DNA of 38,426 nucleotides, taken from assembly GCF_900114615.1 (NCBI RefSeq), contig NZ_FOTS01000048.1, forward strand, positions 1 through 38,426, read 5' to 3'. A model generated the notes under the pieces. It searched no databases, was not told the origin of the DNA, and saw nothing but the letters and a program-made list of their open reading frames with translations. Source of the DNA: Pelosinus propionicus DSM 13327. GTDB lineage: Bacteria > Bacillota > Negativicutes > DSM-13327. Positions within the stretch are counted from its first letter, which is position 1. Every line of letters begins with the position of its first letter. The position numbers and the translations under genes are program-made. Shown here in pieces: positions 2,373 to 20,456 of the stretch.

Positions 2373-2405
2373 AAGGGCACTAGTGGAGAAAAGGAGTGTA
2401 ATCGG

Positions 2406-4751
2406 ATGGTAGATTTGATAAGAAAAGGAGCTTATTTATTAAAAGGCAGGCTCATAGTAGAAAATGCAGATAAGTTAAATATTGATGAATTAAATCAGCG
2501 ATTAGTCCATGCTGGGGTTAGTCCTTTGTCTGAAAAGGTAATTAAGCAAGAACAAGCTAAGGCAAGTACGATTGCCAATAAAATATTGAATAAGCATAAC
2601 ACCTCAGAAGATTGGCATAATTTAAAGCTGAAATTTGATGCACTAACTTCTCATGACATAACATATGTGGGGATTATTCAAACGGCAATAGCCAGTGGGC
2701 TTAAGGAGTTCCCAGTACCTTACGTTTTAACGAATTGTCATAATAGTCTTGGTGCTGTAGGCGGAACGATTAATGAGGATGATCATGTTTTTGGACTTTC
2801 AGCGGCGCGTAAATATGGTGGAATCTATGTTCCAGCCCACATGGCTGTAATTCATCAATACATGCGTGAAATGCTGGCAGGCTGTGGGCAAATGATTCTA
2901 GGTTCCGACAGTCACACCCGGTATGGTGCGCTGGGCACTATGGCAATTGGTGAAGGTGGGCCGGAGCTTGTAAAACAGCTCTTAGGACGAACCTATGAAG
3001 TGCCTTGTCCTGAAGTCGTAGCCATATATCTCGAAGGAGAACCGATTAAAGGAGTAGGTCCTCAAGATGTGGCATTGGCTATTATTGGAGCAGTCTTTAA
3101 AGATGGATTCGTTAAAAATAAAGTAATGGAATTTGTAGGACCGGGGGTGAGGAATCTTAGTGTTGATTTTCGGAATGGCATTGACGTAATGACGACAGAG
3201 ACAACTTGTTTATCTTCTATTTGGCAAACAGATGAAAAGGTAGAAAGATACTTTAAAATTCATGGACGGCCTGAAGCCTATCAAAAACTAGAACCGGGTG
3301 AAGTGAGTTATTATGACGGAGTAGTTAAAGTAGACTTAAATAAAATTGTTCCTATGATTGCTCTTCCTTTTCATCCAAGTAATGTTTATACCATAGCAGA
3401 ACTCAATCGTAATGCTGCAGATATTCTTCATAAGGTTGAAGTGGAAGGAAACAAACAACTAGAAAACTCAAAGCTGCAATTCAAATTGACGGATAAATTA
3501 GTTAATGGACATCTTATGGTTGACCAAGGGGTTGTAGTAGGATGCTCAGGCGGAACTTTTGAAAATATCGCAGCTGTAGCCCAAATCTTAGAGCAAAAAT
3601 CCACTGGTAATGGGAATTTCTCTTTGAGTGTGTATCCGGCTAGTCAACCCGTATTTGCCGAGCTCATGGCCAATCGCTCTATGGAGAAATTGATACAGGC
3701 AGGTACAATTATTCGAACTGCTTTTTGTGGTCCATGCTTTGGTGCAGGAGACACGCCAACTAATAATGGGCTAAGCATCAGACATGCTACGCGGAATTTT
3801 CCGAATAGGGAAGGATCTAAACCCGATAATGGGCAAATTGCATCGGTAGCGTTGATGGATGCACGTTCCATAGCGGCCACAGCTATAAATGGAGGGCTGT
3901 TGACTTCAGCGACAGATGTAGAGTACAGTGATACTCCTGTGGAATATAAATTCGATAAACAATCGTACACCAATCGGGTATATCAAGGGTTTAGCCAGCC
4001 TAGATTGGAAGAAAATCTTAAGTATGGTCCTGGTATTGCCAATTGGCCGGAAATTAGACCGCTTCCGAATAACTTACTGCTTCAAGTGGTTTCGGTCATC
4101 CATGACGCAGTTACTACAACGGATGAGCTGATTCCTTCAGGGGAAACTTCTTCCTACAGATCAAACCCTTTCAAACTTGCTGAATTCACACTTTCTAGAA
4201 AAGATCCAGCTTATGTCGGCAAGGCAAAAGCTGTACAAAAGCTAGAAGTTCAACGGCAAAAATTGCTCACAGAACAGGGGGAACAGCAAGAAGTAGAAAA
4301 TACCTTCCAGACGATATTGGCGGCGGAAAAACTCAGCACTGCTAAATTGAAGGAACTCATTAAAGATACAGGTCTTGGCAGCGTTATTTTTGCTATAAAG
4401 CCAGGTGATGGATCCGCTAGAGAACAGGCTGCTTCTTGTCAAAGAGTGCTGGGAGGAGACGCTAATATTGCTATCGAGTATGCCACGAAACGTTACCGAA
4501 GTAATGTAATCAATTGGGGTATGATTCCTTTCACAATTCATCCTGCAGATATTGAAAAGATAGCTGCCGATAGTTATATTTTTATTCCTAACATTCGTCA
4601 AAGTATTAAAACTGGCGCAGAAAAAGTACAAGCATTTGTAATCAATGAAAGAGGTAAAATTGCTCTGGAACTTAAACTGGAGAATCTTGCGAAAGAAGAT
4701 CGGGATATTATTCTGGCAGGATGCCTCATTAACTATTACGCTGGTAACTAA
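2406..4751 (+). CDS. Second aconitase-superfamily hydratase (YbhJ-like, 781 aa)
   Basis: A longer and divergent aconitase-superfamily protein that most resembles the uncharacterised hydratase group typified by E. coli YbhJ. Putative cluster cysteines are Cys380 (GCSGGTFEN, replacing the usual C-T-N motif) and Cys441/Cys444 ([15 protein letters not shown]). The swivel domain near the C-terminus holds DGSAREQAA and [10 protein letters not shown]. The N-terminal 50 residues or so, with VKLLKGR-like start [12 protein letters not shown], are absent from the shorter neighbour. It starts 33 bases after the first aconitase, behind AAGGAG, so both are made together. The change near the first cluster cysteine suggests a substrate other than citrate. 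The reaction is unknown; family membership is certain, specificity is not. Confidence 0.82.
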
Positions 4752-4774
4752 AAAAATGTACGAGGAGATTCAAT

Positions 4775-5743
4775 ATGAACAAAGTGTTATTTTTCAGTGG
4801 ACTTAATCAACACGTAACAGATATTTTCCGAGGGATGATGCCTGAAGGTTTTGAAGTGTCCTGTCATTCAAACAGTCTAAGTGATAAGGAAAAAGCAGAA
4901 CTAATTCGGGAAGCAGAGTTTGTGGTACTTCATCCTGCAGAAATTTCTGACAGTGTTTTGCAAGAGGGCAAGTCACTGCGGCTTCTCCAACTTCTCACTG
5001 CCGGCTATGATAAGGTTGACCTGAAAGTCACAGGGGAACTTGATATTCCAGTGGCTACCAATGGTGGTGCCAACGCTTGGGCTGTTGCCGAACACAGTAT
5101 TGCCTTGTTGTTAGGTCTCTACCGGAAACTCATTGCATGTGATCGGTCAGTTCGTGAGGGAAAGTGGCGGCAAGCAGTCACTGGATATGACATTTTTGAA
5201 GTAGCAGGGAAAACCGTTGGTTTACTTGGAGCAGGAAATATTGGTAAAAAAGTAGCCAAGCGTCTAAAGGCTTTTGAGACAAATATTCTGTATTATGATG
5301 CGAGCGCTGCGCCTGAGCTAGAAACAGAGTTAGGTGCCCGTAAAGTTTCTTTAGATGAGCTGCTGCGCGAAGCGGATATTATTACGATCCACCTTCCGTT
5401 ACTTCCAGAAACACGTGGACTTATTGGAGAACGAGAATTGCAGATGATGAAACCGACAACCGTCCTTCTCAATGCGAGTCGCGCTGAAATTGTGGAAGAG
5501 GAGGCACTGATTACAGCACTCAAAGAAAAACGCATTGCTGGTGCTGGACTGGATGTGTTTCACAAAGAACCTATCTCACCAGAAGATCCATTGCTAACAC
5601 TTGAGAATGTAATACTTTCCCCCCACATAGCTGGGCATGCATATGAAGGCTGGAGCCGACGCATGTCTTTCGCGTGGGAGAACATACAGCGAGTAGCAGC
5701 AGGAGAAGCGCCTCTTTCCCTGGCTCGTCCGAAGAACAAGTAA
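4775..5743 (+). CDS. D-isomer specific 2-hydroxyacid dehydrogenase
   Basis: NAD-dependent dehydrogenase that interconverts a 2-keto acid and a D-2-hydroxy acid. The nucleotide-binding Rossmann motif GLLGAGNIG follows the TVG strand in the middle of the protein. The catalytic triad of the family is present: Arg in NASRAEIV, Glu in the DVFHKEP region, and His in LSPHIAGHA. At 322 residues it has normal length. It starts 23 bases after the second aconitase behind GAGGAG, within the operon. In this setting it could reduce oxaloacetate or pyruvate from the lyase step, recycling NADH, or oxidise a hydroxy acid before the aconitase steps. The substrate is inference. Confidence 0.85.
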   Translation: MNKVLFFSGLNQHVTDIFRGMMPEGFEVSCHSNSLSDKEKAELIREAEFVVLHPAEISDSVLQEGKSLRLLQLLTAGYDKVDLKVTGELDIPVATNGGANAWAVAEHSIALLLGLYRKLIACDRSVREGKWRQAVTGYDIFEVAGKTVGLLGAGNIGKKVAKRLKAFETNILYYDASAAPELETELGARKVSLDELLREADIITIHLPLLPETRGLIGERELQMMKPTTVLLNASRAEIVEEEALITALKEKRIAGAGLDVFHKEPISPEDPLLTLENVILSPHIAGHAYEGWSRRMSFAWENIQRVAAGEAPLSLARPKNK

Positions 5744-5765
5744 TATAATTCATTCTGTTAATGAT

Positions 5766-5801
5766 TTTCTAGCAATGGGAAATAGTTCCCGTTGCTAGAA
5801 A
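5766..5801 (+). other. Intercistronic hairpin without a T-tract
   Basis: Positions 5766-5781 (TTTCTAGCAATGGGAA) pair fully with 5786-5801 (TTCCCGTTGCTAGAAA), with one G-T pair and a four-base loop ATAG. No T-run follows (ATGATATC), so it is not a standard terminator. It sits 23 bases after the dehydrogenase gene and about 115 before the RraA gene. It may be an mRNA-stabilising or processing stem that sets expression of the upstream part of the operon apart from the downstream part. Confidence 0.6.
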
Positions 5802-5915
5802 TGATATCTATAATGTTCTTAAGAATGTAATGAATTGTGTAAATATTTGGAAATATAAAAAGCTGCTTTCTAGGTCACATTTGCCTGTAGGATTATTTTA
5901 TGAGAGGAATTCATT

Positions 5916-6530
5916 ATGAGTATTTACGAACAATTTCTAAAAATTCCTGCCACATGCATTTCAGATAGTCTTAAAGGGCTTACCAATATGGATTTTACTA
6001 TAAAGCCATTAAAAGAGACATACAAGATAAGTGGGCCTGCCTGTACGGTAAAACTTCTTGCTAATGACAATTTGATATTCCTTAAAGGTTTGGTGCTGGC
6101 AAAGCCCGGAGATGTTTTAGTCGTAGATATCGGGAGCTATCAGTATAATGCGATAGCTGGTGATTTTATGATAGGTGCCGCTAAGGTGTTAGGTTTGGCT
6201 GGAGTCGTGGTAGACGGCACTGTTCGGGATAGTGCTGGTATAAAGGAAACTGATTTTCCGGTTTTTTGCAGAGGGAATACGCTTGCTGCTAGTAATAAGG
6301 TAGGTATTGGTGAAGTGAATATACCTATTTGCTGTGGAGGAGTAGTCGTTAATCCTGGGGATATTATTATTGGAGATGCTGATGGTGTTGTAGTAGTTCC
6401 TCAAGATAGAGCGACCGAAACATTAAAATTTGCGCTAAAAAAAGAACAGGCAGATCGGAAACGGGCCAAGCTTTTGGAAAGTGCAAACGCGACAAGAGAG
6501 TATATTAACAAATTGCTTTTAAAATCATAG
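5916..6530 (+). CDS. RraA-family aldolase/decarboxylase
   Basis: Member of the RraA / HMG aldolase (class II pyruvate aldolase) fold family. The family includes 4-hydroxy-4-methyl-2-oxoglutarate and 4-carboxy-4-hydroxy-2-oxoadipate aldolases, many of which also decarboxylate oxaloacetate. Visible marks are the GDVLVVDIG strand, the GVVVDGTVRD segment carrying the Arg and Asp that bind substrate and metal, and DADGVVVVP near the C-terminus. 204 residues is usual. It starts behind GAGAGGAATT. Being in an operon with citrate lyase, it could turn oxaloacetate into pyruvate, or cleave a branched tricarboxylic keto acid. The RNase E regulator role of E. coli RraA is unlikely here. Confidence 0.82.
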   Translation: MSIYEQFLKIPATCISDSLKGLTNMDFTIKPLKETYKISGPACTVKLLANDNLIFLKGLVLAKPGDVLVVDIGSYQYNAIAGDFMIGAAKVLGLAGVVVDGTVRDSAGIKETDFPVFCRGNTLAASNKVGIGEVNIPICCGGVVVNPGDIIIGDADGVVVVPQDRATETLKFALKKEQADRKRAKLLESANATREYINKLLLKS

Positions 6531-6559
6531 ATTTCGGAGCTGGCATCACATTTATTGCC

Positions 6560-6664
6560 CTGATAAAACGTTATCTTACGACTTAAGAGGCAAGCTCATT
6601 CACCACAATCAGGACTCTATCCTAGCAGTTGTACGATGGTGCGTAAGAGTGTTGCTCTACAGCG
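6560..6664 (+). pseudogene. Internally deleted relic of the 438-2372 aconitase gene
   Basis: Positions 6560-6586 match 523-549 of the first aconitase gene at 23 of 27 bases, and 6587-6657 match 1375-1452 at 63 of 71 aligned bases with one 7-base gap. The two blocks are in the same order as in the parent but about 825 bases between them are missing. Translation around the junction gives PDKTLSYDL then RGKLIHHN, to compare with ADQTLSHDL and GGKPIHHN in the intact protein; after the gap the frame is lost. It is a dead gene remnant in the gap between the RraA gene and the hydrolase gene, evidence of an older duplicate or paralogue at this place. Confidence 0.8.
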
Positions 6665-6714
6665 TTTCCATATTAAAAAATAGAAAAATCAACAAATAAG
6701 GTGGTATATGCATC

Positions 6715-7473
6715 ATGAAGATGGAAGTTGTTGTTCAAGGTTTTCCAGGAAAGACAGCTAGCGGATCATTAAGCTGGAGCTCAGTTATTTATGTTGAAAG
6801 TGGGGATGAAAAGATACTTTTTGACACAGGAGGACCAAGTAAACGTAATCCGATCCGCAGCCACTTACAAAAAATTGGTGTAAATGCAAATGAAATAACT
6901 ATGCTGGTTTTTAGTCATTTTCACGATGACCATGTAAGAAATTATGATTATTTTCCAAATGCAAGAATTATTATGCATGCAAAAGAGGCAGAATGGATAC
7001 AAACGGAACCGAGTGATTTTGCAGTTCCTCAATTTTTATACCCGGCAGTGCAAAAAACAGGCCGATTAGAACTGGTTACTGAGGATGGAGAAATCGCACC
7101 TGGAGTGGAGACTCTTCTAGTTCCTGGCCATACGCCGGGGAGTATGGCTTTGGTTTTACGGGATTCCGATATGCCTGTTACTGTATTAACTGGAGATGCA
7201 GTAAAAAATATAGCAGAACTGGCAACTGGTAAAGTTGCTAAAGCATTAGACCCGACTTTGAATGCTCAAAGTATTAAGAAAATTAGGGATATTGCTGAAG
7301 TAGTTGTTCCTGGTCATGACCGTATGCTTAAAGTGACAGAGGATAGGATCATAGCGTTAACTGCCGCTCATGAAACAATCATTCTTCCGGCAGGGGTAGC
7401 TAATACGGATTCACCTAGATATCTAGAGTTAGTCATTGAACAGACTTGGCTGCAAAAAGAAGAAATATTATAA
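6715..7473 (+). CDS. Metallo-beta-lactamase-fold hydrolase
   Basis: Soluble 252-residue enzyme of the metallo-beta-lactamase superfamily, closest in layout to the N-acyl homoserine lactonase/quorum-quenching type and glyoxalase II relatives. The zinc motif is His68-x-His70-x-Asp72-His73 (SHFHDDH). Further ligands are His in VPGHTPGS, Asp in LTGDAVKN and His in VPGHDRM. The start follows AAGGTGGTA. In a carboxylic acid operon it could open a lactone form of the substrate (citrate-type acids lactonise) or hydrolyse a thioester; this is inference. It lies just after the aconitase relic and 78 bases before the MFS gene. Confidence 0.8.
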   Translation: MKMEVVVQGFPGKTASGSLSWSSVIYVESGDEKILFDTGGPSKRNPIRSHLQKIGVNANEITMLVFSHFHDDHVRNYDYFPNARIIMHAKEAEWIQTEPSDFAVPQFLYPAVQKTGRLELVTEDGEIAPGVETLLVPGHTPGSMALVLRDSDMPVTVLTGDAVKNIAELATGKVAKALDPTLNAQSIKKIRDIAEVVVPGHDRMLKVTEDRIIALTAAHETIILPAGVANTDSPRYLELVIEQTWLQKEEIL

Positions 7474-7551
7474 ACAGTAAAAAGTGCTGCCTTATCATTG
7501 TGTAACAATTTAGTATATGCATAAGAGAGATAACATTATAGGAGGGCTAAG

Positions 7552-8868
7552 ATGAATGTATCTACTAATATAAATGTATCTGCAAATGGAAAAGTGAAAT
7601 CCCTTTGGCGAGGTAAAAGACTTTATATTATGATTTTGTTGTTTTTTGCTTCGCTAATTAACTACATTGATCGTGTCAGCATGTCTGTTGCTGCTCCAGC
7701 AATTATTAAGGATTTTGGTTGGGACTCGGCAACGATGGGGATTATGTTATCATCTGCTTTTTGGGCATACGCAATTGCCTTAGTGCCCATTGGTTATTTT
7801 GTTGATAAGATCGGTGCACGTAAATTGAATGCTTTTTCAATTTCTTTTTGGTCACTAGCTGCCATGGTTACAGGAATATCGAACGGTTTTGGAACAATGC
7901 TGGCATCAAGGTTGGCACTGGGCGCAGGTGAAGCTTCCACCATGCCATCTGGCAGTAAAGTAGTTCGTCAGTGGTTTCCGATCCAAGAGCGTGGTTTGGC
8001 AACTGCGTTGGCTCGATCGGGAGCAGAGGCCGGTCCGGCTATCGGAATGCCGCTCGTAGCTTGGTTAGTCCTGGATTATGGTTGGCGCATGTCGTTTATC
8101 ATAACGGGTGCAGTTGGCTTTATTTGGCTGTTTTTCTGGCTGAAATATTTTCGGGACAAACCGCAGGATTCTGCGTTACTATCATCTGAAGAAAAAGACT
8201 ATATTGTAGCCAATACTGACAGTAATCAGGAAACTGCCGATAAAGGTATACCCAAAGGAACCCTCTGGCGTCTATTGCAGCAGAAAACTATGTGGGGATT
8301 GGCTTTGTCTCAAGGATGCATTATGTACACTCAGTATTTGATACTTACTTGGCTGCCAACATATTTGGTTCAAGTAAAACATTTACAATTGATGAAAGCA
8401 AGTGTTATGAGTTCTGTTGCCTTTGTCTGTGCATGGGTTTTGGGAATAGTAGTCTGTAAAATGAGTGATACGCTGTTAACTCCTGAAAAAGTCTTGAAAG
8501 GTCATCGCCGTACAATGGTAGTTGTTTTTATGGTGTTATCCAGTATATTCGTGTGTACTACAATGGTGGAAAGTCCTGTTGCAATTTTAGTAATCATTAC
8601 CTTGGTTAAGGCATTTCTTTCCTCCACAATTGGACTTAATATGACCCTGACGAATGACCTTGTTGCTACTCCAGCTGTCGCTGGAACAGCTTTTGGGATA
8701 CTGTTGCTTGGTGGCAACTTATTCGGGTCGATGGCGCCAATTGTGACGGGATATATTGTCAAGACGACTGGAAGTTTTGATAACGCGTTTTATCTGGCAG
8801 GTGCGCTGATTGTAATTGGATCTCTCATTTCTTTGTTCATGACTCGCAAGCCGATTACGGTTGAATAG
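7552..8868 (+). CDS. MFS transporter, anion:cation symporter type
   Basis: Twelve-helix membrane carrier of the major facilitator superfamily. The N-terminus has the NYIDRVSMSVAAPAI segment typical of the anion:cation symporter group that takes up sugar acids, hexuronates, tartrate and other organic acids. A central hydrophilic loop (about residues 205-235) divides two six-helix halves. 438 residues is normal. The start ATG follows AGGAGGG. As part of the operon it probably brings in the substrate or an alternative acid, beside the second carrier at 9073. The exact solute is unknown. Confidence 0.85.
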   Translation: MNVSTNINVSANGKVKSLWRGKRLYIMILLFFASLINYIDRVSMSVAAPAIIKDFGWDSATMGIMLSSAFWAYAIALVPIGYFVDKIGARKLNAFSISFWSLAAMVTGISNGFGTMLASRLALGAGEASTMPSGSKVVRQWFPIQERGLATALARSGAEAGPAIGMPLVAWLVLDYGWRMSFIITGAVGFIWLFFWLKYFRDKPQDSALLSSEEKDYIVANTDSNQETADKGIPKGTLWRLLQQKTMWGLALSQGCIMYTQYLILTWLPTYLVQVKHLQLMKASVMSSVAFVCAWVLGIVVCKMSDTLLTPEKVLKGHRRTMVVVFMVLSSIFVCTTMVESPVAILVIITLVKAFLSSTIGLNMTLTNDLVATPAVAGTAFGILLLGGNLFGSMAPIVTGYIVKTTGSFDNAFYLAGALIVIGSLISLFMTRKPITVE

Positions 8869-8919
8869 TTAAGATTATGAAATCTGTTAGTATATAATTA
8901 TGCCTTTATAGTTAAAAAG

Positions 8920-8938
8920 GAGGGGCAGTCAGCCCCTC
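8920..8938 (+). other. Hairpin that buries a Shine-Dalgarno sequence
   Basis: GAGGGGC (8920-8926) pairs perfectly with GCCCCTC (8932-8938) around the loop AGTCA. The left arm is part of AAAGGAGGGGC, the best ribosome binding site in this gap, so folding would hide it. No T-tract follows, which argues against a plain terminator. It stands before a 32-codon reading frame at 8950. Confidence 0.55.
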
Positions 8939-8949
8939 ATGACTTAGCG

Positions 8950-9048
8950 ATGAAATTACTTAATATGAAAAGGACAATGAATGATTGCAAAGAAGTGGTC
9001 AAGCGTATCGGAATGGCCGATCCTTTTAATATTGTAAGCACTAAATAA
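8950..9048 (+). CDS. Possible small ORF or gene remnant (32 aa)
   Basis: ATG to TAA frame of 32 codons between the MFS and DASS carrier genes. The peptide begins MKLLNMKRTMNDCKEVV and ends ADPFNIVSTK. It is soluble and has no signal peptide. The only ribosome binding sequence is inside the hairpin 12 bases upstream. I do not recognise it. It could be a leader peptide, or the tail of a deleted gene, since this operon already contains one gene relic. Confidence 0.25.
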   Translation: MKLLNMKRTMNDCKEVVKRIGMADPFNIVSTK

Positions 9049-9072
9049 AATATCTTGTTGGGTAGGTTAAAG

Positions 9073-10479
9073 ATGAATACAAAGTTATTTAAATGGATTA
9101 TGATTATTTTTTTTCCAGTGATGATATTACTTATTCCAGTACCAAGTGGTTTTACACAAGATGCATGGAATTTATTTGCAATTTATGTTGGCGCCATACT
9201 GGGGATTATGTTAAGACCAGTACCGGAGCCGGTTATCATGCTTATTGCAATTAGTATAACTAGTCTATGGCTGAAAAAAATGGATTTAGTATTGAGTGGA
9301 TTTAGTAATGGCACAGCATGGCTGGTGTTTACAGCATTTACATTAAGTCAAGCATTTTCGACGACGGGGTTAGGAAAGCGAGTTGCCTATATCTTAATAG
9401 GTAAACTTGGTCAATCGACTCTTGGTCTGGGGTATGCATTTGCGCTCACTGATGCGCTAATTAGTCCAGCAACGCCGTCAAATACAGCAAGAACTGCTGG
9501 CATTGTGTATCCAATTTTTCAAAGTGTATCGGTTACATTAGGATCTGAGCCGGGGAAAACAGGCAGGAAGATCGGAGCTTATCTAAATTTGCTGGCATAT
9601 CAAATTAGCATGACAACATCATGTCTTTTTGTCACTGCTACTGCGTCGAATATTATAGTGGTACTTTTTGCAAAAGATATTTTGCATGTAGATGTTACTT
9701 GGTTAACGTGGGCCTATGCGGCATTTGTGCCCGTGATGCTAGTGTTAGCTATAATTCCTTATTTGGTGTATAAGATTTATCCACCAGAAATAAAGAAGAT
9801 TGATAATTATCGTGAAATTTCACGTGAGGGATTACTCCGCTTAGGAGCTGTATCTAAAAATGAAAAAATTCTAGCAGGATTATTTATAGCCGCAGTAATT
9901 GGTTGGTCTACCATGGAATTTACTCACTTTGACGCTGCAGCTATTTCTATAGCATTTGTTAGTTCAGCGTTGTTGACAGGAATCATTACTTGGGAAGGAA
10001 TTTTGAAATCAGGAAATGCATGGAGTACCTTCCTTTGGTATGGTGGAATAATCGGATTAGCGACTTCTTTAAGTAAAGCTAAGTTTTTTGTTTCACTTGC
10101 TGGTGCTATTGGTACATATGTTCAATTTTCAGGATATAATCATTACCTTGTATTTGCGTTCATATTATTCATCTCTATTGCTGTACGTTATGCGTTTGCA
10201 TCAACAGCTGCTTATGCAACTTCTTTCGTGCCTGTGTTATTTACTTTAGGAGTTGCTGCAAATTTGCCAGCGATGCCTTTAGCACTCTTACTTGGGATTT
10301 CTTTAACTTGGGGTGCGCTTGTAACTCATTATGGCGGTGCTGCTGGCCCAGTTCTTTATGGAGCAGGTTACGTTGATCAAGTTACATGGTGGAAAGTTGG
10401 AACAGTCGTAGTAATGGTTCATTATCTGGTGACGATTGGTATTGGTCTTCCTTACTGGAAGCTGCTGGGCTTATGGTAA
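9073..10479 (+). CDS. DASS-family di/tricarboxylate transporter (CitT-like)
   Basis: Membrane carrier of the divalent anion:Na+ symporter family (SLC13/CitT/TtdT), which exchanges or imports citrate, tartrate, succinate and similar acids. The two substrate-binding SNT-type motifs are visible as SPATPSNTART and in TATASNIIVV. About 12 hydrophobic segments fill the 468 residues. I chose the ATG at 9073, preceded by GGGTAGG, over a TTG at 9055. It sits directly upstream of citD, the common place for the citrate carrier in citrate fermentation operons. An antiport of citrate-like acid against succinate, acetate or similar product is plausible. Confidence 0.85.
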   Translation: MNTKLFKWIMIIFFPVMILLIPVPSGFTQDAWNLFAIYVGAILGIMLRPVPEPVIMLIAISITSLWLKKMDLVLSGFSNGTAWLVFTAFTLSQAFSTTGLGKRVAYILIGKLGQSTLGLGYAFALTDALISPATPSNTARTAGIVYPIFQSVSVTLGSEPGKTGRKIGAYLNLLAYQISMTTSCLFVTATASNIIVVLFAKDILHVDVTWLTWAYAAFVPVMLVLAIIPYLVYKIYPPEIKKIDNYREISREGLLRLGAVSKNEKILAGLFIAAVIGWSTMEFTHFDAAAISIAFVSSALLTGIITWEGILKSGNAWSTFLWYGGIIGLATSLSKAKFFVSLAGAIGTYVQFSGYNHYLVFAFILFISIAVRYAFASTAAYATSFVPVLFTLGVAANLPAMPLALLLGISLTWGALVTHYGGAAGPVLYGAGYVDQVTWWKVGTVVVMVHYLVTIGIGLPYWKLLGLW

Positions 10480-10535
10480 ATACATCAATCAGAAGCCGCT
10501 TATCCTGGGAATAAAAGATTGGAGGAGAATATTTG

Positions 10536-10808
10536 ATGAGTAAGCTACTTAAAGCAGCACAAGCCGGAACAGTTGAATCAAGTGATATTTTGATTTCTCT
10601 GATGCCAGCTGAAGCTGCAACTGGAATACAAGTAGAATTAGTGAGTCCTACACTGCAGCAATATGGGAAACATATCAAAAATCTTATAATAGAAACACTA
10701 GTTTTTCATGGAATTGAGGATGTGCAGGTCTATGCTAATGACAAAGGTGCATTAGATTGTACAATTAAAGCACGCGTAAAAACAGCATTAGAAAGGGCAG
10801 GAGAGTGA
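10536..10808 (+). CDS. citD: Citrate lyase acyl carrier protein (gamma subunit)
   Basis: Small acyl carrier subunit of citrate lyase that holds the phosphoribosyl-dephospho-CoA arm on a serine. The conserved AGTVESSDILI segment, residues about 10-20, contains that serine. 90 residues is the family length. The ATG at 10536 lies nine bases after GGAGGA and is preferred over the TTG just before it. It is followed after 10 bases by citE, so the complex is made from one message. No gene for the arm-synthesis or acetylation enzymes (citC, citX, citG) is in this window, so activation must depend on genes elsewhere. Confidence 0.93.
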   Translation: MSKLLKAAQAGTVESSDILISLMPAEAATGIQVELVSPTLQQYGKHIKNLIIETLVFHGIEDVQVYANDKGALDCTIKARVKTALERAGE

Positions 10809-10818
10809 GGAGGATACA

Positions 10819-11700
10819 ATGGAAAAGCTAAGAAGAAGCATGATGTTCGTTCCTGGTAACAATCCAGGAATGCTTCTAAATGCCGGCATTTATGGTGCTG
10901 ATACGATTATTCTAGATTGTGAAGATGCCGTAGCAATTACTGAGAAAGATTCTGCTAGAAATCTTGTATTTCAAGCTATATCAGAACTGAATTACGGTAC
11001 AGAAGTAGCTGTTAGGATCAATCACATTAGTACACCTTTTGGTTGGGATGACCTAAAAAGAGTACTACCAGCAAAGCCTGATCTAATTCGATTGCCTATG
11101 GCTCAAGGACCAGAGGAAATTCGCCAAATTGATGAATTCATTAGTGAAGCAGAAGAAAAGAATAAATTCCCTGCGGGATCAATTAAAATGATGGCTGCTG
11201 TTGAAACTCCCAAAGGTTTACGTTTTGCCTATGAAATCGCAGCAGCGAGTCCTCGGATGGTAGCATTGGCTATTGGTGCAGAGGATTTCATTGCCAACTT
11301 AAAAACGACGCGCAGTAAATTGGGACGAGAATTATTAGCGGCCAGAGGACAATTGGTACTGGCAGCTCGGGAAGCTGGTATCCAGTGTATTGATACGGTT
11401 TTTTCTGACATCAATGATGAAGAAGGATTTAAAAGGGAACTTGAGCTCATTAAAGAAATGGGCTTTGATGGTAAATCCGTTGTAAATCCTCGTCAAGTTA
11501 GTGTCGTTCATGATTTCTTTGCGCCTACGGCGAAAGAAATGGATCACGCTGAAAGAGTTCTTGCTGCTTATCAAGAAGCCCTTGAGAAAAAATCAGGGGT
11601 TATCTCACTCAACGGAAAAATGATTGATCTGCCGATTGTAGCACGGGCAGAACGTACCTTGGCCTATGCGAAAGCTGCTGCTGGGAAAGGGGGCAAATAA
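10819..11700 (+). CDS. citE: Citrate lyase beta subunit (citryl-CoA lyase)
   Basis: CitE cleaves citryl-[acyl carrier protein] to oxaloacetate and acetyl-[acyl carrier protein]; it has a TIM-barrel fold with Mg2+. Recognisable blocks are RRSMMFVPGNNP at the N-terminus, ILDCEDAV with the acidic metal-binding residues, VAVRINH with the substrate Arg, and ALAIGAEDFIANL. 293 residues is normal. The start follows GAGGAGG. The stop codon is two bases from citF. A homologous complex, citramalate lyase, has the same three subunits, so a methylated substrate cannot be excluded from sequence alone. Confidence 0.92.
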   Translation: MEKLRRSMMFVPGNNPGMLLNAGIYGADTIILDCEDAVAITEKDSARNLVFQAISELNYGTEVAVRINHISTPFGWDDLKRVLPAKPDLIRLPMAQGPEEIRQIDEFISEAEEKNKFPAGSIKMMAAVETPKGLRFAYEIAAASPRMVALAIGAEDFIANLKTTRSKLGRELLAARGQLVLAAREAGIQCIDTVFSDINDEEGFKRELELIKEMGFDGKSVVNPRQVSVVHDFFAPTAKEMDHAERVLAAYQEALEKKSGVISLNGKMIDLPIVARAERTLAYAKAAAGKGGK

Positions 11701-11702
11701 AA

Positions 11703-13244
11703 ATGAAAAACTCTATCGGAAGAGAAATTCCTGATTTTATACCTGGACTAGGGAAAGTGACTGGCTTTGGCGGTGCGTTTGCTTATAAACCTGTTGGACG
11801 GACTGCAGGGGCAACTTTAACTACATGCTTACCGCGGGCGGATAAACTTTTAGCTTCCATTGAAACTGCCATTGATGCCGTAGGACTCAAAGACGGTATG
11901 ACAATATCATTTCATCACCATTTTCGTAATGGAGATCGGATCTTAAATCGTGTAGTTGAGGCAATTGCGAAAAAGGGGATTCGAGATATTACCCTTTCCC
12001 CGAGCTCACTTAATACGGTCAATGATGCACTGATTCCTTATATTGAGCAGGGGGTAATTACCGCAATCGAAACAAGTGGTGCCAGAGGGAAAATGGGGCG
12101 GTTTTTAACAGAAGGTCATTTGAAAAAACCATTGCACATCCGTTCCCATGGTGGTCGGGCGCAGGCAATTGAAAGTGGTGCCATTCATATTGATGTGGCT
12201 TTCCTTGGTGCTCCTGCCTGCGATCGCTACGGTAATATTAACGGAATTCAAGGTCAGTCTGCCTGCGGTTCTCTTGGGTATGCCATACAAGATGCAGCGT
12301 ATGCGGATCAAGTTGTAGCCATTACAGATAATCTAATGCCTCACCCTTTATTTCCCATCAGCATTCCACAAACGCAGGTTGATTATATTGTTGTAGTAGA
12401 CAGTATTGGTGATCCAACTGGTATTGCTTCCGGTGCTCTTCGTTATACGAAAGACCCAAAAGAATTGCTCATTGCCAAATATGCTGCTGATGTGCTGGAC
12501 TATTCGGGTTACTTGCAGCAAGATTTTTCCATGCAGCTTGGCAGCGGTGGTGCGTCCATGGCTGTCGGTCGCTTTATCAAGACAAAGATGCTCGAAAGAG
12601 GAATCACGGGTAGCTTTGGAGTTGGCGGCATGACGGGTGTTTTTGCTGAAATGATGGAAGAAGGATTATTTAAGATGATGTTTGATGTACAGAGTTTTGA
12701 TATTCCCGCCATTGATTCCATCAAGAAAAACAGCAATCACTTAGAAATGTCAGCCTCTTACTATGCAAACCCTCATAATAGTGGAGCGATTGTCAACAAT
12801 CTTGACGCTGTGATATTAAGTGCGACAGAAGTTGACGTTGATTTTAACGTCAATGTGATTACCGATTCAAACGGAGTGATTATGGGTGCTTCCGGCGGTC
12901 ACTGCGATACGGCTGCTGGCGCTAAGCTGACCATTGTGGTAGCTCCGCTGCTTCGTGGTCGGTTGCCTATGGTTAAAGATGCTGTTCAGACGGTGGTAAC
13001 ACCTGGTGAAACAGTGGATGCTATTGTTACAGAACGAGGAATTGCTATTAATCCTAAACGATTGGACATCATTGATAAAGTAAAACATTCTGGCCTTCCT
13101 ATCATGTCCATACATGAGCTTAAGGATATTGCCTACAAACTATGTGGTAAACCAGAGGCGATTGGGCTAAGCGATGAGATTGTCGGAGTTGTAGAATATC
13201 GGGATGGAACCATTATTGATGTAATCAGACGGCCAATTTTATAA
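11703..13244 (+). CDS. citF: Citrate lyase alpha subunit (citrate:acetyl-ACP transferase)
   Basis: CitF swaps the acetyl group on the acyl carrier protein for citrate, making citryl-ACP and free acetate. The 513-residue length and start region (IPGLGKVTGFGGAFAYKP) are typical, as are FHHHFRNGD, the SSLNTV region, HGGRAQAIESG and GASGGHCDTAAG. It begins two bases after citE, so translation is probably coupled. It is the last gene before the strong hairpin at 13265-13298, which closes the operon. With the aconitase-type enzymes upstream it would provide the carbon-carbon cleavage step of an anaerobic pathway yielding acetate. Confidence 0.93.
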   Translation: MKNSIGREIPDFIPGLGKVTGFGGAFAYKPVGRTAGATLTTCLPRADKLLASIETAIDAVGLKDGMTISFHHHFRNGDRILNRVVEAIAKKGIRDITLSPSSLNTVNDALIPYIEQGVITAIETSGARGKMGRFLTEGHLKKPLHIRSHGGRAQAIESGAIHIDVAFLGAPACDRYGNINGIQGQSACGSLGYAIQDAAYADQVVAITDNLMPHPLFPISIPQTQVDYIVVVDSIGDPTGIASGALRYTKDPKELLIAKYAADVLDYSGYLQQDFSMQLGSGGASMAVGRFIKTKMLERGITGSFGVGGMTGVFAEMMEEGLFKMMFDVQSFDIPAIDSIKKNSNHLEMSASYYANPHNSGAIVNNLDAVILSATEVDVDFNVNVITDSNGVIMGASGGHCDTAAGAKLTIVVAPLLRGRLPMVKDAVQTVVTPGETVDAIVTERGIAINPKRLDIIDKVKHSGLPIMSIHELKDIAYKLCGKPEAIGLSDEIVGVVEYRDGTIIDVIRRPIL

Positions 13245-13264
13245 TCGTATGCAATTTGATCTCG

Positions 13265-13298
13265 GTTTGCCCCATAGTAAGATTACTATGGGGCAAAC
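13265..13298 (+). terminator. Operon-end hairpin after citF
   Basis: GTTTGCCCCATAGTA (13265-13279) pairs perfectly with TACTATGGGGCAAAC (13284-13298) around the loop AGAT. The stem is very stable and begins 21 bases after the citF stop. The T-run is weak (TTGTAATAG), so termination may be partial or the stem may mainly protect the 3' end. Confidence 0.75.
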
Positions 13299-13359
13299 TT
13301 GTAATAGTACTTCAAAGACGGAAAAAATATAACGGATTATATCAGAAATAGCTAAAGTC

Positions 13360-13405
13360 TTGTTTCAAATCTGTATTTCGTTTTGGGTTTGTTTCATGGT
13401 AGAAT
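13360..13405 (+). promoter_or_regulatory. Regulator gene control region with paired TTGTTTCA
   Basis: TTGTTTCA occurs at 13360-13367 and 13389-13396. The second copy extends to TTTGTTTCAT (13388-13397), the reverse complement of the 10-mer at 228-237 upstream of the operon. A possible vegetative -10 (TAGAAT, 13400-13405) lies immediately beside it, so binding there could repress the regulator's own gene. The -35 is poor. Assignment to the PrpR-like regulator is inference from the shared motif. Confidence 0.45.
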
Positions 13406-13463
13406 CAAATAAAAGACAGGGATTACATTCTCTCTATACTAATAATAAAAAATATAAGTTGGG

Positions 13464-15347
13464 TTGGATGAAATGAAAAAAATAGCGTTTCTCGCTCCAG
13501 ATGAAGGTAAACTCACAGAAATTAAAAGCGTACTATATGATTTTCATAATGAAGTGATATTTGAAGTAGGATCATTAGCGGATGGTTTGTTAAAGGCGGA
13601 GAAACTAATTCAGCATGGAATTGATATTATTCTTGCCCGCGGTGAAACGGCATTTAACATCCGGGATAAATACCCGGATATTGTAGTAGTAGATATTCCT
13701 ATTACCGGCTTTGATTTAGTGCAGACTTTGGAGAAAGCCAAACAATTTGGTGATAATGTAGCCGTAGTATCTTTTCCATCTATGATAAAGCAAATTGAAA
13801 GTTTAGAATCGGCTCTTGGGGTCAATATTAAGAAATATTATTTGTCTCGGAGGGAAGAGGTTGATCGTGCAATTGATGATGCTTTAAAAGACGGTGCTAA
13901 TGTTATAATCGGCGGATTTACGGCAAAAAAAGCTACCCAAAAGAGAAGTCTTCCTTATGTTGAGTTTGTAACCGGACAGCAAGTATATTTGGAATGTTTC
14001 CAAACCGCAAAAAGTATTTTGAAATCGATTGAGCAGCAGAAAAGAAGAGCGGGCTTGATAAAGGCTGTGCTGAACCATGCTTACGAAGGAATTTTGTCGA
14101 TTGACGAAAAGTGCTTGATCTCTTCGATTAATCCCGTGGCGCAGCGAATATTAAATTTGAGAGCAAATGTAGGAGAAAATATCAATGAAGTGTGGCAAGA
14201 ATTACGATTAGATAAAGTATTATTAACTGGTAAAGAAGAACTTAATCAATTTCTTAAAGTAAACCAAATTAAAATTTTATGTAATAAAGTGCCTATAATG
14301 GATCGAGGAAGGATTATCGGGGCAGTTGCAACATTTCAAGATATCACTAAAATACAAAAAATGGAGTCTCGTATTCGTAATGAAATTTATGCCAAAGGAC
14401 ATGTAGCAGCCTATACTTTTAAAGATATAAGCTTTGTGGATCAGGTAACTAAGGAAGTCTTGGATATGGCGAAAAATTTTGCTGTTGCTGAGGCGAATGT
14501 CTTATTGAATGGTGAAACAGGGACGGGAAAAGAAGTCTTTGCGCAGAGTATTCATAATTTTAGCAATAGAGCAAAAGGACCTTTTGTGGCAGTAAATTGT
14601 GCAGCGCTGCCGGCACAGCTGCTAGAGAGCGAATTATTTGGTTATGTAAGCGGTGCTTTCACTGGTGCCAGTAAGGAAGGGAAATCTGGTTTATTCGAAG
14701 TTGCACATACAGGGACCATTTTTTTGGATGAAATTGGAGAAATGGATTATATTAATCAAGGGCGATTGCTACGAGTGTTGCAAGAAAGATCTGTAGTACG
14801 GCTTGGCAGTACAAAGGTTATACCAATTGATGTACGCATTATTGCGGCCACGAATAAAAATTTGCATGATTTAGTAATTAATCATAAATTTCGCGAAGAT
14901 CTATATTATCGCTTAAATGTGCTTCAATTAAGAATTCCTCCGCTGCGAAGACGTAGGAGAGATATTGGAAATTATGCAAAGATGTTTTTGGCTGAATTTG
15001 CTGATTCTTCAAATACTGAACTCAAATTAAGTGCTGAGGCAACAAAAGTTCTAGAAAGCTATAGTTGGCCGGGTAATATACGTGAATTAAGAAATGTAAT
15101 GCAAAGAGTAGTTGTTTTAGCCAAACGAAAAACAATTAGCGGAGTATTTCTAAAAAAAATGTTAACAATTGAAGAAGATGATAAACAAAATCCAGATGAG
15201 CTAGAAGAGGCAATAGCGATCGAAAATGCATTAACGAAATTTAAAGGGAATATTACAGAGGTAGCCAAGTTTTTAAATGTCAGTCGTTCAACTTTGTGGC
15301 GTAAAATGAATAAGTTGGGGTTAAAGCGGCAGAAGCAAAATAGTTAA
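13464..15347 (+). CDS. Sigma-54-dependent activator with PrpR-type sensor domain
   Basis: Enhancer-binding protein of 627 residues. Residues about 1-165 resemble the PrpR N-terminal domain, which in enterobacteria senses 2-methylcitrate. A PAS-like segment follows (about 190-300). The AAA+ domain has Walker A GETGTGKE starting at residue 350, the sigma-54 contact loop GAFTGA starting at 397, and Walker B TIFLDEIGEM. The C-terminal Fis-type helix-turn-helix is near NITEVAKFLNVSRSTLWRK. Together with the sigma-54 promoter at 356-372 it is the obvious activator of the upstream operon. By analogy it may sense a tricarboxylic acid intermediate. The ATG at 13473 inside MDEMKK is an alternative start; ribosome binding sites are weak for both. 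Confidence 0.9.
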   Translation: MDEMKKIAFLAPDEGKLTEIKSVLYDFHNEVIFEVGSLADGLLKAEKLIQHGIDIILARGETAFNIRDKYPDIVVVDIPITGFDLVQTLEKAKQFGDNVAVVSFPSMIKQIESLESALGVNIKKYYLSRREEVDRAIDDALKDGANVIIGGFTAKKATQKRSLPYVEFVTGQQVYLECFQTAKSILKSIEQQKRRAGLIKAVLNHAYEGILSIDEKCLISSINPVAQRILNLRANVGENINEVWQELRLDKVLLTGKEELNQFLKVNQIKILCNKVPIMDRGRIIGAVATFQDITKIQKMESRIRNEIYAKGHVAAYTFKDISFVDQVTKEVLDMAKNFAVAEANVLLNGETGTGKEVFAQSIHNFSNRAKGPFVAVNCAALPAQLLESELFGYVSGAFTGASKEGKSGLFEVAHTGTIFLDEIGEMDYINQGRLLRVLQERSVVRLGSTKVIPIDVRIIAATNKNLHDLVINHKFREDLYYRLNVLQLRIPPLRRRRRDIGNYAKMFLAEFADSSNTELKLSAEATKVLESYSWPGNIRELRNVMQRVVVLAKRKTISGVFLKKMLTIEEDDKQNPDELEEAIAIENALTKFKGNITEVAKFLNVSRSTLWRKMNKLGLKRQKQNS

Positions 15348-19544: not shown

Positions 19545-19591
19545 GATGATGTTTTTAGCGTCAAAGCTCTGTGCTTGACCTGATAATAAAA

Positions 19592-19620
19592 AAGGCAGCC
19601 GTGTATTCTGCGGCTGCCTT
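19592..19620. terminator. GC-rich hairpin after the methyltransferase
   Basis: AAGGCAGCCG (19592-19601) pairs perfectly with CGGCTGCCTT (19611-19620). There is no T-run on the plus side, but the A-rich left flank gives a T-run on the minus strand, so the hairpin would work best for minus-strand transcripts and only weakly for the gene just upstream. Confidence 0.6.
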
Positions 19621-19664
19621 GAATGTATTGCTATGAGTAACGGCTCTCCCATAATGCTTTTTGC

Positions 19665-19692
19665 TTGCAATCCCATCAGAAAGTACTATAAT
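19665..19692 (+). promoter_or_regulatory. Vegetative promoter of the candidate RNA gene
   Basis: TTGCAA (19665-19670), 16 bases, TATAAT (19687-19692) predict a start near 19699. No good open reading frame follows before 20049, but a set of hairpins and a terminator do. Confidence 0.6.
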
Positions 19693-19698
19693 TAGTAA

Positions 19699-19956
19699 TA
19701 GGTGGAAATTAAAAAGTCGCCGTGTCCCAAGAGTGTAGCACCACTCTTTAGGCACGAGCAGGTGGCCTAAGCACCTACACGTAACAGTTACCTGTCTACG
19801 ACGACAATTTATTATACCGTGATCCCTCCCTGAAGACAAGGGATGGTATGTTCGGGATAGTAGGATTGTAGTCTGGCAGAAGCTGAGCGTCTGCATGCAA
19901 TCAAGATGAAGCAAAGCGCATGTGTAGGTTTAAAAAACCTTGCATGGGCTTTTTAA
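19699..19956 (+). ncRNA. Candidate structured non-coding RNA (rod-like, perhaps 6S-like)
   Basis: About 258 bases between a promoter and a terminator fold well and lack a plus-strand gene. A 5' hairpin spans 19721-19756 (CGTGTC with GGCACG, and AAGAGTG with CACTCTT). A long rod follows: CTGTC (19792-19796) with GGCAG (19875-19879), GACGACAATTT (19800-19810) with GGATTGTAGTC (19863-19873) with one mismatch, then a bubble, ATACC with GGTAT (19814-19818, 19845-19849), and ATCCCT with AGGGAT. A GCAGA/TCTGC stem competes with its base. The bubble in a long rod recalls 6S RNA, but I do not recognise a conserved sequence. RNase P, tmRNA and SRP RNA hallmarks are absent. Confidence 0.55.
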
Positions 19957-19957
19957 T
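19909..19957 (+). terminator. Terminator of the candidate RNA
   Basis: AAAGCGCATG and CATGGGCTTT pair around an inner AGGTTT/AAACCT stem, followed by TTTTTAATTTC. This long stem with a T-run closes the RNA gene and lies about 90 bases before the next coding start. Confidence 0.75.
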
Positions 19958-20048
19958 TTCTCCCATTACGCTTGCTGTATTCTGGCTTCTTCTTCTGGTA
20001 TATTAGAAAGAAGAAGCCTCATACAGTATGAATATGGGGGGATATATA

Positions 20049-20456
20049 TTGGCATCCATAAGAAGTATGAAGAGAAACATGAAAAGCCGGCGGCGTCAAA
20101 GAAATTTGACAGCAAAGCCAGAAAGCATTCAGTCCCACAATCAGCAAGGGATCGCGGAGAGGAACATACCCGTTAGAAGTGTAGTTACTGGGCAATGGTT
20201 GGAGAAGAGCGATGCGCTTCGTGATTGGCAAGAGTTTGTTTTTATGCGCCAAGAGAAAATAGAAGAAAAGTTGGAATTTGGTGAGTTATCGAGTGAATAT
20301 ACGACCATCATGAACCAAGTCGATCAACTATTAGAAGGGCAGCCGGAAACGGTAAGTAAAGCCGTTACTCATCTGGTGGTGACAGCTACCTATATGCACT
20401 ATAACAAAGGCTTTTTCGATGGTATGAAGATTGGAACGGCTATGGAGAAATTATAA
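20049..20456 (+). CDS. Unknown Arg-rich small protein
   Basis: 135-residue protein that I do not recognise. The N-terminus is very basic (MASIRSMKRNMKSRRRQRN) and may bind nucleic acid or phospholipid. The middle is a charged helical region (WQEFVFMRQEKIEEKLEFGELSS), and the end (YMHYNKGFFDGMKIGTAMEKL) looks amphipathic. I favour TTG at 20049, seven bases after GGGGGG, over the ATG at 20028 which has no ribosome binding site. It follows the candidate RNA gene and ends with a strong terminator. Conserved hypothetical is the honest call. Confidence 0.65.
   Translation: MASIRSMKRNMKSRRRQRNLTAKPESIQSHNQQGIAERNIPVRSVVTGQWLEKSDALRDWQEFVFMRQEKIEEKLEFGELSSEYTTIMNQVDQLLEGQPETVSKAVTHLVVTATYMHYNKGFFDGMKIGTAMEKL

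What the first reader, a model, noticed from the sequence alone, without database searches (positions are those of the whole stretch)
19665..19957. Candidate non-coding RNA gene with rod-like fold
A promoter, about 258 bases that form nested stems, and a strong terminator, but no credible reading frame. The long rod with an internal bubble recalls 6S RNA, yet I recognise none of the standard RNA family sequences. It may be a diverged 6S RNA or a new family.
Basis: partly seen in the sequence, partly recalled or inferred. Interest (0 to 1): 0.6.

Follow-up and report, generated by a model that had tools for sequence, protein, structure and literature searches.

The report
Leader RNA with built-in antisense gene
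The flagged stretch is one copy of an apparently undescribed, multi-copy bacterial RNA module: a long structured leader in front of a small-protein gene, which seems to carry a second RNA gene on its opposite strand whose two pairing loops change much faster than anything around them, as one would expect if each copy's antisense RNA must recognise only its own target.

Summary
The 264-base RNA at 19700-19963 folds far better than shuffles, matches no Rfam 15 family, and recurs six times in its genome and in 30 of 300 genomes of its class, its own included (Pelosinus, Sporomusa, Propionispora and relatives), plus Desulfosporosinus. The genome has three 6S RNAs elsewhere. It is not a stand-alone gene: a Shine-Dalgarno run (20036) and a TTG-started 135-codon ORF (20049) follow, and other copies precede SymE-like, DUF6809-like or unknown small genes. 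The 3' arm of the closing stem can pair with the RNA's 5' end or with the ribosome site; both pairings covary. On the opposite strand, inside the RNA, lies a promoter-like sequence: TATAAT in 122 of 122 copies, -35 box at 17 bases in 109, reading back through the 5' domain. Two hairpins there have near-invariant stems and loops that differ at 58% of positions between copies whose silent sites differ by 8%. Best reading: an antisense-RNA-controlled small-protein module that works like a type I toxin-antitoxin locus, with copy-specific loop recognition. Transcription, repression and toxicity are untested.

The parts
19665..19692 (+). sense promoter, -35 TTGCAA (19665-19670), -10 TATAAT (19687-19692)
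   Evidence: aligned in the six own-genome copies; a simple search found TATAAT in 94 and TATACT in 5 of 122 copies, nothing in 22
19700..19963 (+). structured leader RNA (short form; other copies up to about 420 bases)
19700..19716 (+). 5' arm of closing stem P1 (AGGTGGAAATTAAAAAG); read on the other strand, the U-tract where the antisense RNA would end
   Evidence: own arms pair at -17.5 kcal/mol, swapped arms -14.9 (sd 0.19), 0 of 200 swaps as good, 66 copies
19716..19805 (+). helix P2 (19716-19724 with 19797-19805), closing the 5' domain
   Evidence: 97.6% of cells paired, compensatory changes in two of eight pairs, 68 sequences
19726..19752 (+). hairpin P3; hypervariable loop at about 19736-19741
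   Evidence: stem differences 0.008, loop 0.429 per position in 255 pairs of copies 90-98.5% identical
19760..19776 (+). hairpin P4; hypervariable loop at about 19765-19770
   Evidence: stem differences 0.003, loop 0.559 in the same 255 pairs
19774..19780 (+). CCTACAC, complementary to GTGTAGG at 19922-19928; all seven pairs kept in 68 of 68 aligned copies (one by G-U)
   Evidence: in an earlier set of 76 copies one (L077) lacks CCTACAC through a deletion
19811..19839 (-). antisense promoter inside the RNA: -35 TTGTCT (19839-19834), 17-base spacer, -10 TATAAT (19816-19811)
   Evidence: scan; -10 identical in 122 of 122 copies, spacer 17 in 109 and 18 in 7 of 122
19700..19804 (-). inferred antisense RNA, about 105 bases, three stem-loops and a U-rich tail
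   Evidence: fold of 19689-19804 minus: z -3.99; start and end inferred from the promoter and the U-tract; no terminator scored there
19916..19949 (+). 3' terminator-like hairpin (GCGCATGTGTAGG...)
   Evidence: not scored as a terminator by the scan
19949..19966 (+). 3' arm of P1 (CTTTTTAATTTCTCC) running into the anti-Shine-Dalgarno stretch CTCCCAT (19960-19966)
20036..20041 (+). Shine-Dalgarno run GGGGGG; mean pairing probability with the P1 3' arm region 0.85, 0.93 when the first 17 bases are kept unpaired
20049..20456 (+). small-protein ORF, TTG start, 135 aa; C-terminal part resembles the DUF6809-like proteins of other copies
   Evidence: dN/dS median 0.23 over 10 pairs of 5 homologues; hhalign E 5e-5, probability 67%

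Best explanation
The element is the long 5' leader of a small-protein gene, with an antisense RNA gene nested inside it on the other strand; together they work like a type I toxin-antitoxin locus. The sense transcript starts near 19699 and, at least in part, runs into the ORF at 20049. When its 5' end pairs with the arm just behind the last hairpin (stem P1), the C-rich end of that arm is partly held and the ribosome site is freer. When the 5' end is taken away, the C-rich arm pairs with the Shine-Dalgarno run and shuts translation. The antisense RNA, started inside the leader and ending at the U-tract opposite the 5' arm, is complementary to exactly that 5' end and to the two hairpins. Contact would begin loop to loop, and the loops diverge so that each of the several copies in a cell is controlled only by its own antisense RNA. 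Shown here: the conserved parts, the covariation of P1, P2 and the Shine-Dalgarno pairing, the antisense promoter sequence, the loop divergence, and selection on two of the protein families. Inferred: that both RNAs are made, that they meet loop first, and that binding represses translation. That the proteins are toxic is a guess, best supported for the SymE-like ones.
For: Antisense promoter: -10 TATAAT in 122 of 122 copies; TTG-type -35 at 17 bases in 109 of 122; its CAA core is invariant in the 68 aligned copies while the bases between are variable (TTG itself was a search condition, the spacing was not). It is placed so that the RNA covers the whole P2-closed domain and ends at the A-run opposite. 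Loops: in pairs whose fourfold sites differ by under 10%, loops differ by 57.8% against 7.6%, in 13 of 13 pairs; copies L135 and L203 of P. fermentans JBW45 differ almost only in the loops; 1 of 305 within-genome pairs shares both loops; loops do not covary with any other part of the transcript. Switch: P1 covaries; the Shine-Dalgarno helix scores higher with own than swapped arms, 17.6 against 15.8 (sd 0.32, 0 of 200 swaps), 62 copies; keeping the first 17 bases unpaired raises that pairing by over 0.2 in 13 of 53 copies and lowers it so in none. Coupling: 16 of 16 genomic copies of one protein family in 12 genomes sit behind an element; dN/dS medians 0.23 and 0.24; SymE-like genes (PF08845) form a cluster of 18 downstream ORFs.
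Against: No transcript of either strand was seen. The terminator scan found none on either strand, so the end of the antisense RNA rests on the U-tract alone. A GC-rich hairpin plus a U-run of 5 or more in 49 of 66 copies, and a group II intron lodged just behind it in one copy (such introns often sit behind terminators, from recall), leave open that much of the sense RNA stops before the gene. In 40 of 53 folds blocking the 5' arm changes the ribosome-site pairing by 0.2 or less: in most it is already closed, and in 8 of 53 the pairing is not predicted at all. The loop U-turn motif common in antisense systems (recall) is not clearly enriched. Loop sharing is about as rare between genomes (4 of 5581 pairs) as within. 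SymE (3 of 8) and DUF6809 (3 of 8) genes were also found with no element in the DNA held. The downstream proteins are unlike typical hydrophobic type I toxins. The invariant CCTACAC/GTGTAGG pair has no explanation in this model.
Confidence: 0.7

Rival explanations
1. A large riboswitch-like leader: the conserved RNA senses a ligand or protein and P1 controls the ribosome site, without any antisense RNA.
For: Expression-platform anatomy and covariation; one RNA in front of unrelated genes; the invariant CCTACAC/GTGTAGG pair.
Against: The downstream genes show no metabolic theme; an exact opposite-strand -10 box in 122 of 122 copies at an almost fixed distance from the -35 box with a variable spacer, and fast-diverging loops on near-invariant stems, are not expected of a ligand pocket.
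Confidence: 0.14
2. A stand-alone structured RNA with its own promoter and terminator that acts in trans, the downstream ORF being expressed only by read-through; for instance a type III-like arrangement in which the RNA binds the protein.
For: Promoter, RNA, terminator-like hairpin, then gene is the order of type III loci (PMC4147584, passages seen); U-runs of 5 to 7 in 49 of 66 copies; a group II intron just behind the hairpin in one copy.
Against: No tandem repeats; several unrelated protein families behind the same RNA; U-run length varies while P1 pairing covaries.
Confidence: 0.11
3. A diverged 6S RNA, as first proposed.
For: Long rod-like fold.
Against: No 6S match up to E 10; three 6S RNAs elsewhere in the same genome; multi-copy leader position.
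Confidence: 0.01

Closest known systems
SymE/SymR of Escherichia coli (type I toxin-antitoxin)
   Same: SymE-family proteins (PF08845) lie behind a cluster of copies; an RNA encoded opposite the mRNA's 5' part is expected to block translation.
   Different: SymR overlaps the start codon and ribosome site (PMC4147584, passages); here the antisense gene lies over 200 bases upstream, inside a structured leader of about 265-420 bases, and would act through the closing stem. The window's own protein has no SymE match.
ZorO/OrzO and Ibs/Sib type I pairs
   Same: Near-identical paralogous loci (zorO-orzO, zorP-orzP) whose short variable antisense region sets target specificity; loop-loop contact proposed; two recognition regions in Ibs/Sib (PMC3919570, passages).
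   Different: No matched protein family was seen; here the variable parts are two loops on near-invariant stems in a leader shared by several unrelated protein families.
ToxIN-like type III toxin-antitoxin loci
   Same: Promoter, RNA, terminator-like hairpin, then small gene (PMC4147584, passages).
   Different: No tandem repeats; unrelated protein families behind one RNA.
6S RNA (RF00013)
   Same: Long imperfect rod in the predicted fold.
   Different: No family match; 6S matches present elsewhere in the genome.

Membership tests
Type I toxin-antitoxin | Antisense RNA gene with its own promoter overlapping the mRNA of the small-protein gene | tested here: inconclusive
   Promoter sequence conserved in 122 of 122 copies and antisense fold z -3.99; no terminator scored; transcription not testable here
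Type I toxin-antitoxin | The antisense RNA represses translation or stability of the mRNA | not testable with these tools
   Only predicted: keeping the 5' arm unpaired closes the ribosome site further in 13 of 53 copies
Type I toxin-antitoxin | The encoded small protein is toxic | not testable with these tools
   Only family resemblance: PF08845 SymE_toxin in part of the copies
SymE/SymR | The downstream protein belongs to PF08845 | tested here: not met
   For the window's protein no PF08845 match; met for other copies
6S RNA | Match to RF00013 | tested here: not met
   three separate 6S matches elsewhere in the genome
Riboswitch | Conserved domain plus a mutually exclusive pairing that controls the ribosome site | tested here: inconclusive
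   Both pairings covary and partly exclude each other in folds; control of translation itself not testable
Riboswitch | Binding of a small ligand | not testable with these tools
   No metabolic theme among downstream genes
Type III toxin-antitoxin | Antitoxin RNA made of tandem short repeats | tested here: not met
   0 tandem repeats in 19640-20060 at score 30

The most novel reading that the evidence does not exclude
A previously undescribed family of antisense-RNA-controlled modules in which one conserved sense/antisense RNA unit has been put in front of several unrelated small-protein families, and in which two recognition loops are diversified faster than silent sites, by selection against cross-talk or by a dedicated loop-changing process, giving each cell a set of up to about ten mutually private RNA locks.
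Probability: 0.5. Interest if true: 0.85.

Novelty: new variant of a known kind. Interest (0 to 1): 0.74.

Why it matters
If right, this is a natural library of sense/antisense RNA pairs: more than a hundred distinct copies (136 collected) built on fixed stems with two short divergent loops. That makes the question of how related antisense RNAs avoid cross-talk directly testable, and offers ready-made orthogonal regulators. It would also extend RNA-controlled toxin-like modules to Sporomusa-type bacteria, to DUF6809-like and unnamed small proteins, and to a leader-switch mechanism in which the antisense RNA works through a distant closing stem.

Tried and rejected
6S RNA: rejected. Reading the opposite-strand ORF 19561-19914 as a gene: no Pfam match, and loop lengths vary by non-multiples of three. 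Phage or plasmid element: no match in 50,697 phage or 72,556 plasmid records; one viral contig carries a copy next to lysis- and recombinase-type genes (those names are from reading the translations, not from a family search). Mobile element with fixed ends: in the pair L135/L203 similarity runs from within 60 bases before the RNA to the end of the ORF and the flanks then differ, as in a duplicated cassette, but no insertion signature was sought. Loop pairing inside one transcript: own no better than swapped in all five tests. U-turn motif in loops: 34 of 85 distinct antisense P4 loops against 40.6 in shuffles; P3 borderline, 47 and 53 of 1000 shuffles as high. Alternative pairing of CGUG (19721-19724) with 19755-19758: 86.8% of cells paired, compensatory change in one pair, weak against shuffles; left open. 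Other libraries: only weak, partial matches for the downstream proteins in NCBIfam, PHROGs and PADLOC, SymE-like below the NCBIfam cut-off. Structure: MYRTYRTT family pLDDT 72, no PDB match with E under 0.001; window protein pLDDT 53, too poor to search. Literature: ten searches showed no description of this RNA in titles, abstract starts or the passages read; only open-licence PMC papers are held, so absence is weak.

Errors on the way: a first downstream tblastn used the wrong frame and was redone. An earlier count gave a covariation energy for whose sign I checked only (-150.6 = -82.4 folding plus -68.2).

Rows dropped before counts. Copies with identical sequence from 40 bases before the RNA to 140 bases into it were collapsed (136 kept, 122 with a 3' end); this removes pairs identical in the loops and so favours loop difference among the closest pairs. 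L181 and L194 (5' end replaced) were left out. One search used 62 of 65 non-redundant copies with at least 300 bases downstream (68 in all); one search used 53 of 68. One search used 110 copies from 19 genomes listed by hand. One search used the 42 of 119 copies whose downstream gene was recognised in three families; in its other bins loops exceeded fourfold sites in 48 of 50, 43 of 53 and 28 of 52 pairs.

Full report
What was claimed and what is there. The promoter is TTGCAA-16-TATAAT at 19665-19692. The fold is real: z -4.56, no shuffle of 200 as good. No Rfam family matches at gathering score in the whole window, and the permissive search of 19550-20030 gave only matches below their gathering scores. 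In five other 5-8 kb loci that carry copies the one gathering-score match, a pemK RNA, lies more than 4 kb from the element. The terminator is less sure: the scan found none on either strand.

A family, not a single RNA. A blastn search of 60 related genomes (own included) found the stretch in 20, six copies in the window's own genome. A covariance model built from 35 copies matched 30 of 300 genomes of the class, own included, and 3 of 398 of the phylum, one of them the window's own. A pattern scan of named genomes returned 78 stretches: Pelosinus, Sporomusa, Propionispora, Propionispira, Anaerospora, Lucifera, Massilibacillus, unnamed Bacillota and two Desulfosporosinus. One genome of the window's genus has a contig as long as the P. 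fermentans JBW45 chromosome, so the window is Pelosinus by inference. There is a short form of about 265 bases and longer forms up to about 420.

Structure. The consensus fold of 41 short-form copies has -150.6 kcal/mol, of which -82.4 is the folding term and the rest covariation. The 5' end (AGGTGGAAATTAAAAAG) pairs with the arm behind the last hairpin (CTTTTTAATTTCC); own arms pair better than arms swapped between copies (-17.5 against -14.9, sd 0.19, 0 of 200; 66 copies). Helix P2 and hairpins P3, P4 and P5 keep 97.9% of cells paired in 68 sequences, with 6 pairs changed on both sides against 1.5 in shuffles; the count of further pair types is not exceptional (42 of 500 shuffles as high). 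CCTACAC (19774) and GTGTAGG (19922) are complementary and kept in 68 of 68 aligned copies, once by G-U, so they give no covariation evidence; in an earlier set of 76 copies one, L077, lacks CCTACAC by a deletion. They may be a pseudoknot or an alternative to the last hairpin; I could not decide.

It is a leader. Behind the RNA, on the same strand, 99 of the 113 copies with at least 350 bases downstream have an ORF of at least 45 aa with a Shine-Dalgarno-like sequence starting within 330 bases. The proteins fall into unrelated clusters: DUF6809-like (37 ORFs; Pfam matches weak, one of three tested over the cut-off), SymE-like PF08845 (18), an unnamed MYRTYRTT family (18), the window's type (7) and others. 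The reverse also holds for one family: 16 of 16 MYRTYRTT genes found in 12 genomes lie behind an element; for SymE it is 5 of 8 and for DUF6809 5 of 8, one SymE locus having only about 430 bases upstream in hand. Two families are under selection: median dN/dS 0.23 (window type, 10 pairs, range 0.13-0.31) and 0.24 (MYRTYRTT, 131 pairs, 0.09-0.98). In the window this gene is 20049-20456 with a TTG start; its C-terminal part aligns with the DUF6809-like set at E 5e-5, probability 67%.

A two-way switch at the ribosome site. The arm that closes P1 ends in a C-run complementary to the Shine-Dalgarno run of the gene, in some copies over 15 bases (CCCCCTATAAAAAGC with GCTTGTGATAGGGGG, L194). Own pairs beat swapped pairs, 17.6 against 15.8 (sd 0.32, 0 of 200; 62 copies). 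In folds of leader plus start region (53 copies) the Shine-Dalgarno run pairs with this arm with mean probability 0.67; if the first 17 bases are kept unpaired it becomes 0.81, rising by more than 0.2 in 13 copies and falling so in none; in 8 copies the pairing is not predicted at all. For the window the values are 0.85 and 0.93, so there the site is mostly closed either way.

An antisense gene inside. The scan also reported a promoter on the minus strand at 19839-19811. Across the family its -10 box is TATAAT in 122 of 122 copies; a TTG-type -35 box (TTG was the search condition) lies at 17 bases in 109, 18 in 7 and elsewhere in 6; in the 68 aligned copies its CAA core is invariant while the bases between carry 0.8 to 1.9 bits per position. 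Invariant boxes, nearly fixed distance and free spacer are what a promoter looks like. The RNA would start at about 19804, where P2 ends, run back over P5, P4 and P3 and end at the U-tract opposite AAATTAAAAAG; its fold has three stem-loops, z -3.99; the U-run is 5 or more in 91 of 120 copies, but the scan scored no terminator there in the window.

Loops that run away. P3 and P4 have near-invariant stems and very variable loops. In 255 pairs of copies 90-98.5% identical overall, the loops differ at 43% and 56% of positions, the minus spacer at 8%, the plus spacer at 16%, stems under 1%. Against fourfold degenerate sites of the downstream gene: in 13 pairs with under 10% difference there (mean 7.6%), loops differ by 57.8%, more than the silent sites in 13 of 13; the lead shrinks as silent sites diverge (48 of 50, 43 of 53, 28 of 52 pairs). 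Within a genome, copies differing by under 3% outside the loops (14 pairs) differ by a mean of 49% in the loops. L135 and L203 of P. fermentans JBW45 are the clearest case: in the RNA outside the loops one base change and one single-base gap, against about five changed positions in the loops. Some copies in different genomes keep both loops (L138/L196, L157/L107), but averages within and between genomes are alike, and sharing of both loops is rare both within (1 of 305 pairs) and between genomes (4 of 5581), so avoidance of cross-talk inside one cell is suggested, not proven. Pairs are not independent, and collapsing identical copies favours loop differences among the closest pairs. The loops show no covariation with the rest of the transcript, so the partner is probably another molecule; the antisense RNA is the obvious one.

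Reading. [quoted passage not shown] Here the antisense RNA would take the 5' arm away from P1 and so let the C-run close the ribosome site. Presence of the parts is shown; their transcription and action are inference; toxicity is open. I therefore do not file it as a type I toxin-antitoxin system but say that it most likely works like one. 6S is excluded as far as sequence can: three 6S matches lie elsewhere in the genome.

Print. Ten searches of the held papers gave no description of this RNA in what they showed; passages of five papers were read by term search (PMC8632094, PMC6429828, PMC6563280, PMC4147584, PMC3919570), no paper in full. Most subscription journals and bioRxiv preprints are not held.

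Noticed in passing
L085 (own genome, contig C106), minus strand, from about 315 down: One of the six own-genome copies is broken off inside the P1 3' arm by a group II intron (Rfam RF02003, 81.5 bits, 151-288 minus), directly behind the terminator-like hairpin.
   Followed up: partly
window 19774-19780 and 19922-19928: CCTACAC and GTGTAGG, complementary, with all seven pairs kept in 68 of 68 aligned copies although the last hairpin that holds GTGTAGG changes around it. Possibly a pseudoknot or alternative pairing; unexplained.
   Followed up: partly
window 19721-19724, 19755-19758, 19797-19800: The CGUG strand can pair with either of two downstream segments; in L143 and L112 all three change together (CAUG), so two mutually exclusive helices seem to be kept.
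   Followed up: partly
L065, L159, L198 downstream of the element: Some copies precede a gene for a large protein (about 470-510 aa in L065 and L159) that looks from recall like an ACT/PAS sigma-54 regulator rather than a small protein.
   Followed up: no
L207 5400-6130: A copy with a SymE-like gene sits in a viral contig between what read like amidase/lysis genes and two serine recombinases.
   Followed up: partly
G020 contig C27, 45-60 kb: Three copies of the element within about 14 kb, all in front of DUF6809-like genes.
   Followed up: no
Pelosinus copies such as L044, about 63-240 bases behind the RNA: A conserved short frame (GGYKLVAIQGKRK...) abuts or overlaps the start of the MYRTYRTT gene; it may be a coupled leader peptide. 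In the window the corresponding start opens the main ORF.
   Followed up: no
L143 2983-3078: Rfam pemK RNA match (45.5 bits, gathering 34.8) more than 4 kb from the element in Lucifera butyrica.
   Followed up: no
window 438-15347: Two aconitase-family genes, transporters, citrate lyase alpha subunit and a PrpR-type sigma-54 activator: probably a citrate or tricarboxylate utilisation cluster.
   Followed up: no
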